Source: Kiritimatiellota bacterium (GTDB lineage: Bacteria; Verrucomicrobiota; Lentisphaeria; Oligosphaerales; JAADHN01). From it: a stretch of DNA of 47,776 bases. The DNA lies in NCBI GenBank assembly GCA_013151865.1, contig JAADHN010000021.1:1-47776 (forward strand), in the 5' to 3' direction. The notes below the pieces were generated by a model. The model had not been told where the DNA came from. It searched no databases and saw only the letters and a program-made list of their open reading frames with translations. Both the position numbers and the translations under genes were made by a program. Shown here one piece after another: positions 25,448 to 44,980 of the stretch; the first letter of the stretch is position 1, and the number at the start of each line of letters is the position of its first letter.

Positions 25448-25640
25448 GCCTGTGTCCCGACCGCGCGCCCGGCCCGGCAGCGGTCGCTCGTGCCCCTCCC
25501 GGAGAAGACAAGGCCGCCGCTCCCGGCCCGACTGGAGCAATCCTACGCCTGCGGGCCGCAAAAGCGAAGCAAAGCCTGCCGCCCTTTCGGAAGGGAGGCC
25601 CCTCCCTCCCAAAGCCGCCCACAACCAGTCCACCTCGATC

Positions 25641-25813
25641 AATTCATGGACTTCGCCGCGAAAGGGCACATCTCAAACGGATTCAGGTCATTGCGTCGAG
25701 CGCCGGGCAAGGCAGTATTGAATCCCGCCTCGGTCGGCGGGCGGCGGCAATGATCTGGCGATGTGCGAGATGCGTCATCGCAGCAAATGGCTCATGCCTT
25801 GTTCAGGTTGGGG
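25641..25813. repeat. Dispersed intergenic element, copy 1
   Basis: This copy aligns with 44589-44762 with a single one-base gap. Identical blocks include ACGGATTCAGGTCATTGC and GAGATGCGTCATCGCAGCA. A hairpin with stem CCGCCT (25725-25730) / GGGCGG (25739-25744) and an 8-nt loop is kept in both copies, and most differences across that hairpin are transitions that preserve pairing. A second small hairpin, GATG-CGT-CATC (25769-25779), is identical in both. In each case the element lies upstream of a minus-strand gene and downstream of another. No transposase, target duplication or terminal inverted repeat was seen. Confidence 0.8.
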
Positions 25814-44508: not shown

Positions 44509-44980
44509 GGGACCGTGAAAGGAAACATCGCTTGATCGAAGGGGCAAATCGAGAATGTGCGCCCAAACTCCGTGGGCTTACCCCGGGTAATTCGTGAACT
44601 CCGTCGCGAGAGGACGTAGCTCATACGGATTCAGGTCATTGCATCGAACACCGGACCGGACCGTGTTCAAACACCGCCTTGATCGACAGGCGGCAGCAAT
44701 ATGCTGAAGATGTGTGAGATGCGTCATCGCAGCAGACGGCTCATGCATTATTCAGGGTTGGGTCGATTGAAAAGTCGGACGCCCGCCTCCCGGCGCCGCA
44801 ACCGTAATCGCCGGCAAATCGACTCGGCGGGACGGGGCTCGGAATCGTCCCCGTTCCCCACGCCGACTCACTACAACTACCGTCAGTCCAATAAGTAAGG
44901 CGTCTCGCCCCGGCGGTTCGAGAAACTTCGATTCAGTCGCGCCCGACACGTGAGACGAGCAGGAAAACAGAGCCGCTTTC
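44509..44980. other. Intergenic region holding dispersed repeat copy 2
   Basis: A 472-bp region between the GT9 start and the end of the epimerase gene, both on the minus strand. Positions 44589-44762 are the second copy of the dispersed element. The rest (44763-44980) shows nothing recognisable. Confidence 0.6.
44589..44762. repeat. Dispersed intergenic element, copy 2
   Basis: Partner of 25641-25813, in the same orientation. The conserved hairpin is CCGCCT (44674-44679) / AGGCGG (44688-44693) with an 8-nt loop; compared with copy 1 a U-G pair becomes U-A. The GATG-CGT-CATC hairpin (44718-44728) is identical. A small open frame starting MCEMRHRS is present in both copies, but differences between the copies change several amino acids beyond it, so conserved coding is not supported. 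Confidence 0.8.

What the first reader, a model, noticed from the sequence alone, without database searches (positions are those of the whole stretch)
25641..25813. 173-bp dispersed intergenic element in two copies 19 kb apart
Positions 25641-25813 and 44589-44762 align over their full length with one 1-base gap. They contain identical runs of 18 and 19 bases and no gene. Both copies have the same orientation and both lie 80-200 bp upstream of a minus-strand gene (TPR-mutL and GT9). No terminal inverted repeats, transposase or target duplications are visible, so this is not an evident MITE. It may be a family of small RNAs, shared leaders or binding sites spread across the genome.
Basis: seen in the sequence. 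Interest (0 to 1): 0.7.

Follow-up and report, generated by a model that had tools for sequence, protein, structure and literature searches.

The report
Phylum-wide hairpin mobile element (MITE)
The repeated 174-base stretch is a fossil copy of a small non-coding jumping element with roughly 200 copies in this genome; relatives across the phylum keep the same length and the same single-strand hairpin although their sequences have almost completely changed, which suggests that the fold itself is needed for the element to spread.

Summary
The repeat is real: a dispersed element of 174-175 bp (window 25634-25807 and 44582-44756), with at least 40 copies scored in this genome and about 200 extrapolated (29 near-full copies in 816 kb). 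Young relatives show 4-bp YTAR target duplications and precise empty sites, so it is a MITE. IS1380-family insertion sequences of the same class carry the same ends and YTAR duplications and are the likely mobilisers; none was found in this genome, where copies are old.

The unexpected part is the body. Elements of 173-176 bp with cores mostly 40-56% identical occur across families of the class and in other classes of the phylum. All fold end to end into one hairpin with a conserved subterminal core (TTCGTNRCGAGAG...TCGNAGYAGA). 52 of 66 pairs show compensatory double changes (0 of 500 shuffles). Non-Watson-Crick pairs favour G-U on one strand (53:17 unique sites), while mutations in individual copies are nearly unbiased (96:84). 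This points to selection on a strand-specific single-stranded hairpin in the transposing lineage. No Rfam family matches. What the hairpin does is inferred, not shown.

The parts
25634..25807 (+). Element copy 1, full length (174 bp); '+' is the strand whose hairpin is more stable in the family
   Evidence: nhmmer 171.5 bits, E 5e-51; bounds
25634..25648 (+). Left terminal inverted repeat, degenerate: CTCGATCAATTCATG (consensus CCTGATTAATTCATG)
   Evidence: copy alignment
25652..25664 (+). Left conserved subterminal core TTCGCCGCGAAAG (phylum consensus TTCGTNRCGAGAG)
25778..25787 (+). Right conserved subterminal core TCGCAGCAAA (phylum consensus TCGNAGYAGA)
25793..25807 (-). Right terminal inverted repeat (CCTGAACAAGGCATG read on the minus strand)
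44582..44756 (+). Element copy 2, full length (175 bp)
   Evidence: nhmmer 169.2 bits, E 2.5e-50; folds end to end, z -3.9
44582..44596 (+). Left terminal inverted repeat, degenerate: CCCGGGTAATTCGTG
44600..44612 (+). Left conserved core TCCGTCGCGAGAG
44727..44736 (+). Right conserved core TCGCAGCAGA
44742..44756 (-). Right terminal inverted repeat (CCTGAATAATGCATG read on the minus strand)

Best explanation
The element is a non-autonomous, MITE-type transposon of 173-176 bp. An IS1380-family (DDE) transposase acting in trans binds its terminal repeats and inserts it at YTAR, duplicating 4 bp. Insertion at YTAR with duplication is shown by empty sites in relatives; IS1380 as the mobiliser is inferred from matching terminal repeats and target duplications. 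The body is one long hairpin on a defined strand: its fold, its length and a subterminal core with two asymmetric internal loops are conserved across the phylum while the stem sequence drifts. Because structure is kept in the transposing lineages but not in inserted copies, the folded single strand (a transcript, or single-stranded DNA) most likely serves the element's own spread rather than the host gene next to it. In the window's genome the copies are fossils without a detectable mobiliser.
For: Copies: at least 40 in the genome, 29 near-full in 816 kb. TSD: 129 relatives' copies, 87 with 4/4 and 36 with 3/4 identical bases, left and right flanks associated at Fisher p 7e-17 and 1e-20, neighbouring bases unmatched. 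Empty sites: L103 372-547 against L190, L152 against L068/L184, L126 against L142, each with a single YTAR. Mobiliser: L293 1713-3417, 472-aa PF13701 transposase of 476 bits, TIR CCTGATCAATTCACG/CCTGGATAATTCACG; L296, 1613 bp, TIR CCTGAATAATTCATAAA/CCTGAATTATTCATAAA, TSD CTAA/CTAA; L397 with CTAG/CTAG. End pattern in 30 of 198 class genomes, none in reversed controls. Structure: 39 of 60 and 52 of 66 pairs with double changes, 0/500 shuffles, slid controls 32-41% paired against 91%. Strand: GU 53 against AC 17 unique sites, p 2e-5, + strand more stable in 12 of 12 families; further families sum to 63:12; mutations in copies 96:84. Within-genome copies show no covariation above shuffles.
Against: No IS1380 transposase was detected in G000, G016, G002, G012, G273, G236, G325 or G400, so the mobiliser is not seen in most host genomes; these are draft assemblies and repeats may be missing. 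The element body has no evident similarity to the IS1380 interior, so it is not a simple deletion derivative. G124-G126 elements (160 bp, without the core motif) do not show the G-U excess. No transcript data were available. DNA G-T wobble would give the same strand signal as RNA G-U.
Confidence: 0.74

Rival explanations
1. Ordinary MITE: the palindrome has no function. The arms are kept complementary by arm-to-arm correction (template switching or gene conversion at the hairpin), and only the ends matter for transposition.
For: Within-genome copies show no structural constraint. Bacterial MITE transcripts commonly form stable stem-loops (review PMC10969869). Length variants of 77-119 bp also carry intact TSDs, so the full body is not strictly required for insertion.
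Against: Correction of arms is not expected to favour G-U over A-C mismatches (53:17) when copy-level mutations are nearly unbiased. It would also erase the conserved asymmetric internal loops, which persist across the phylum.
Confidence: 0.25
2. Host-beneficial regulatory RNA, leader or terminator family: copies are kept because they regulate neighbouring genes.
For: 22 of 29 copies lie mostly outside rough gene calls against about 12% of random positions. The hairpin is stable as RNA.
Against: Copies face both ways relative to genes (9 against 8, plus 10 divergent and 2 convergent) and accumulate mutations with no excess of compensatory change and near-equal GU and AC changes. Residence in intergenic DNA is expected of any tolerated transposon.
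Confidence: 0.06
3. REP/REPIN-like element moved by a Y1 (RAYT) transposase acting on a single-stranded hairpin.
For: Palindromic, single-strand fold conserved, high copy; GTAG-tagged REPs exist in Verrucomicrobia (PMC3733652).
Against: Y1 elements do not duplicate the target (own knowledge). Here both flanks carry the same YTAR variant and empty sites have one copy. No RAYT gene was searched for.
Confidence: 0.04
4. Mobilised by another DDE family with a YTAR target (IS5 or IS701 type) rather than IS1380.
For: These families are also known for 4-bp YTAR duplications (own knowledge), and most host genomes lack a detected IS1380.
Against: Transposases found with PF13546 and PF01609 in four to six element-bearing genomes lack these ends, as do the IS630-type PF13358 hits, whereas intact IS1380 elements in the same class carry them.
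Confidence: 0.12

Closest known systems
Bacterial MITEs (Correia elements, QMITE, Chunjie, ERIC), reviewed in PMC10969869
   Same: Short, mostly non-coding, terminal inverted repeats, high copy, intergenic, transcripts predicted to fold
   Different: The 174-nt fold, the length and a subterminal core are conserved across several classes with massive covariation and a strand bias; the review (searched for IS1380, hairpin and Verrucomicrobia) has no hit for an IS1380-linked MITE
IS1380 insertion sequences (prokaryotic outgroup of piggyBac in PMC10813416)
   Same: Same type of terminal repeats (CCTGAATAATTCAT...) and 4-bp YTAR duplication; piggyBac uses TTAA and, rarely, CTAA or TTAG
   Different: The element has no transposase gene, and its body is unrelated to the IS interior
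ERIC / RU-1 (127-bp enterobacterial palindrome)
   Same: Long imperfect palindrome spread through a large clade (own knowledge; copy numbers in PMC10969869)
   Different: Different length and ends; covariation and strand bias of ERIC were not compared here
Integron attC sites
   Same: Works like: a sequence-variable palindrome whose strand-specific fold, with asymmetric unpaired bases, is what is recognised (own knowledge)
   Different: 4-bp target duplications at dispersed single insertions; no cassette arrays noted; no formal attC test was run
REP/REPIN (RAYT-associated)
   Same: High-copy intergenic hairpins
   Different: 20-40 bp units (PMC3733652); here 174 bp with TIRs and TSDs

Membership tests
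MITE (non-autonomous transposon) | Terminal inverted repeats | tested here: met
   CCTGAWTAATTCATG at both ends
MITE (non-autonomous transposon) | Target-site duplication | tested here: met
   4-bp YTAR in relatives, Fisher p 7e-17 and 1e-20; decayed but above chance in G000
MITE (non-autonomous transposon) | Insertion into a previously empty site | tested here: met
   three filled/empty pairs in OFTM167 repeats
MITE (non-autonomous transposon) | Short, non-coding, many copies | tested here: met
   173-176 bp, 29 copies in 816 kb
MITE (non-autonomous transposon) | Autonomous partner with the same ends | tested here: met
   IS1380 elements L293/L295, L296 and L257 in the same class; none found in the window's own genome
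IS1380-derived element | Mobilised in trans by an IS1380 transposase | not testable with these tools
   needs a transposition assay
IS1380-derived element | Internal deletion derivative of an IS1380 copy (shared subterminal sequence) | tested here: not met
   noncoding ends of the IS copies, read by eye, lack the conserved core and body of the element; only the ends are shared
Structured RNA family | Compensatory base changes across homologues | tested here: met
   52 of 66 pairs, 0/500 shuffles; 39 of 60 pairs
Structured RNA family | Defined strand | tested here: met
   GU 53 against AC 17 unique sites, 12/12 families more stable on the + strand; cannot separate RNA from single-stranded DNA
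Structured RNA family | A discrete transcript | not testable with these tools
   no RNA-seq available
Known Rfam family | Match to an Rfam model | tested here: not met
   no match at E 0.1 other than a neighbouring tRNA
REP/REPIN | Short hairpin unit without TSD, linked to a RAYT gene | tested here: not met
   174 bp with TSD; RAYT gene not searched
Integron attC | attC core sites and cassette arrays | not tested
   no formal attC model was run

The most novel reading that the evidence does not exclude
A phylum-wide lineage of tiny DNA transposons whose spread depends on a strand-specific 174-nt folded nucleic acid (a hairpin RNA, or folded single-stranded DNA), with a conserved double-internal-loop core as a recognition site, while the terminal repeats are free to change with the local transposase. 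This would be a structured-nucleic-acid requirement in a DDE (IS1380/piggyBac-type) transposition system.
Probability: 0.4. Interest if true: 0.9.

Novelty: new variant of a known kind. Interest (0 to 1): 0.76.

Why it matters
Bacterial MITEs are usually treated as passive deletion derivatives with young, species-level families. Here the same 174-nt architecture is kept in genomes of several classes although stem sequences have turned over, and the constraint acts on the mobile lineage, not on inserted copies. That makes the question of why MITEs are palindromic directly testable: swap stem sequences, break and restore pairs, and invert the G-U pairs in a transposition assay. It also adds a structure family absent from Rfam and an IS1380-linked MITE system with hundreds of insertion-site examples. 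Terminal repeats differ between genomes (CCTGAATAATTCAT, CCCGCATTTCTCAC, CGCACATTATTCATG, CCCGGACATCTCAC) while the core stays constant, as expected if ends adapt to local transposases.

Tried and rejected
(2) IS701 (PF13546) and general DDE_Tnp_1 (PF01609) transposases in element-bearing genomes: no matching ends. (3) IS1380 in the six genomes first examined: weak or non-matching; it was found only after reading long inter-TIR distances in other class members. (4) The 1802-bp TIR pair in L101 looked like an autonomous copy but holds short IS110-like ORF remnants next to MITE sequence (assignment from reading). (5) IS1380 3' noncoding region as the source of the hairpin: no resemblance. (6) Viral, phage and plasmid collections: no match. 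(7) A selected regulatory role of individual copies: no covariation, no orientation preference.

Full report
OBSERVATION. The element bounds are 25634-25807 and 44582-44756 once more copies are aligned. A search of the window's own genome (G000, 6.21 Mb, 176 contigs, 97% complete) lists 40 scored matches out of 162 candidates. A profile of G000 copies run on 816 kb of the genome finds 29 near-full copies, about 36 per Mb; about 200 copies genome-wide is an extrapolation. No Rfam family matches.

ANATOMY. The copy consensus runs CCTGATTAATTCATGAACTTCGTCGCGAGAG ... CATCGCAGCAGATGGCTCATGCATTATTCAGG. The whole element folds end to end; the G000 consensus reaches -97.3 kcal/mol on the strand shown and -71.9 on the other. 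The window copies fold with z -2.3 on the + strand and -5.1 on the - strand for copy 1, and -3.9 on the + strand for copy 2.

IT MOVES. Related genomes contain the same ends in far younger copies. A strict end pattern occurs 194 times in G058, 102 in G053, 50 in G016 and 33 in G000, and never when read backwards. The window's class is therefore probably Kiritimatiellia or a neighbour. In 129 such copies the four flanking bases match left to right in full in 87 cases and in three of four in 36. The target is YTAR (mostly CTAA, CTAG, TTAG), and the association between the left and right copies is p 7e-17 at position 1 and p 1e-20 at position 4, with no matching beyond. Removing an element and one YTAR copy gives sequences that exist uninterrupted elsewhere: L103 372-547 against L190 (TTAA), L152 against L068 and L184, L126 against L142. 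This is transposition with a 4-bp duplication. In G000 itself only a weak trace of the duplications remains (78 matches against 61 expected, p 0.001), so those copies are old.

WHAT MOVES IT. IS630, IS701 and general DDE_Tnp_1 transposases in carrier genomes do not bear these ends. Reading outward from ends in other class members gave complete elements. L293 1713-3417 in G020 is 1705 bp with a 472-aa transposase matching PF13701 (DDE_Tnp_1_4) at 476 bits, TIR CCTGATCAATTCACG/CCTGGATAATTCACG, and flanks CTAA and CTAG. L296 in G135 is 1613 bp with TIR CCTGAATAATTCATAAA/CCTGAATTATTCATAAA and duplication CTAA/CTAA; G054 has at least eight copies with related ends, and L257 in G063 is a decayed one. 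I assign PF13701 with these ends to the IS1380 family from established knowledge; IS1380 is used as the outgroup of piggyBac, whose target is TTAA and rarely CTAA or TTAG (PMC10813416). Matching ends and target make an IS1380-type transposase the likely mobiliser. This is inference, and no IS1380 transposase was found in G000.

THE BODY IS CONSERVED AS A FOLD. Across G000, G016, G002, G012, G053, G058, G061 and G062 the length is mostly 173-176 bp, although cores outside the outer 32 bases share 40-56% identity between most groups. Two genomes from other classes of the phylum (G317, G325) carry 174-bp elements with the same layout and YTAR flanks. A covariance model of 14 families (R1) then found full-length matches in further genomes outside the class (G236, G273, G400, G412) and a shortened one in G423. 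In a MAFFT alignment of 14 family sequences, 39 of 60 pairs show double changes, 91.1% of cells are paired against 73.8% in shuffles and 32-40% when slid, and no shuffle reaches the observed values. In 11 families drawn from across the phylum the figure is 52 of 66 pairs. The sequence-conserved part lies just inside the ends: TTCGTNRCGAGAG on the left and TCGNAGYAGA on the right, which face each other in the stem as two asymmetric internal loops.

WHICH STRAND. If the constraint acted on double-stranded DNA or arose from arm-to-arm correction, G-U and A-C mismatches should be equally common. Orienting each family by the left core motif (G061b by similarity), unique sites give 53 G-U against 17 A-C (p 2e-5), and the + strand is the more stable in 12 of 12 families. 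One copy each from nine further families (G325, G412, G273, two from G400, G236, G317, G060, G423) sums to 63 against 12 (my sum over); most of these were chosen by the model, which may favour the foldable strand, but all carry the left core on the same side. The internal control is the mutations that individual genomic copies have gained at consensus Watson-Crick pairs: 96 unique G-U against 84 unique A-C over four families, near parity, although G016 counts alone are skewed. Within G000, pairing in copies is no better than shuffles (89.1% against 89.0%). So selection appears to keep a strand-specific fold in the lineages that transpose and to relax after insertion. The evidence does not separate RNA from single-stranded DNA, and no transcript was examined.

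CONTEXT OF COPIES. With a rough GC-position gene caller, 22 of 29 G000 copies lie mostly outside genes, against about 12% of random positions. Orientation to neighbours is balanced (9 and 8 co-directional, 10 divergent, 2 convergent). The window copies lie next to a MutL/TPR region and a glycosyltransferase 9 gene. Nothing indicates a role of individual copies in gene control.

COMPARISON AND VERDICT. By tests of ends, target duplication, empty sites, size and copy number this is a MITE. It is not a deletion derivative of the IS1380 copies seen, since only the ends are shared. It resembles ERIC and other palindromic MITEs (PMC10969869), and in the kind of constraint it works like attC sites, but with a DDE-type target duplication. 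Literature searches on the held library found no description of an IS1380-linked MITE or of this family in the phylum; that library is incomplete. I rate it a new variant of a known kind: the mobile element is ordinary in class, while the phylum-wide strand-specific fold is not.

Noticed in passing
L133 2819-2833, L191 5083-5097, L183 about 6870: Minimal 15-bp palindromes (CCTGATTAATTCAGG or close) sit between YTAR copies (TTAG/TTAG in L191), as if the hairpin had been deleted and only fused ends remain.
   Followed up: partly
L295 3' noncoding 180 bp, L296 178 bp, L300/L311 158 bp: IS1380 copies share a GGGGGWAAGGGGG motif downstream of the transposase stop codon, although G054 and G020 transposases are only about 36% identical.
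   Followed up: no
L156 4767-5031, L199 7341-7605: Element copies of 265 bp carry a nested ~91-bp repeat (TATACTGCAAGCAGTAAGTTTTTCGACATT...) that also occurs elsewhere in OFTM167: a second short repeat family.
   Followed up: no
L101 14-1815: IS110-like ORF remnants lie between two element ends; elements may serve as insertion targets for IS110.
   Followed up: partly
L286, L279, L277, L287 (G011/G017): Other element families with CCTGAATTATTCATG ends carry unrelated palindromic interiors of 112-234 bp, i.e. the same ends with different hairpins.
   Followed up: partly
L045 1499-1758: An element copy ends about 12 bp before a tRNA gene in CSSed165cm_406.
   Followed up: no
L379, L380, L392-L394 (G124-G126): 160-bp elements with the same ends but lacking the TTCGTNRCGAGAG core show no G-U excess: a possible core-less subfamily.
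   Followed up: no
L269, L270, L293 left ends (G001, G020): Some larger elements start with a small palindrome at the left end (CCTGATCAATTCA...TGATCAGG or similar), so hairpin ends occur also in longer elements.
   Followed up: no
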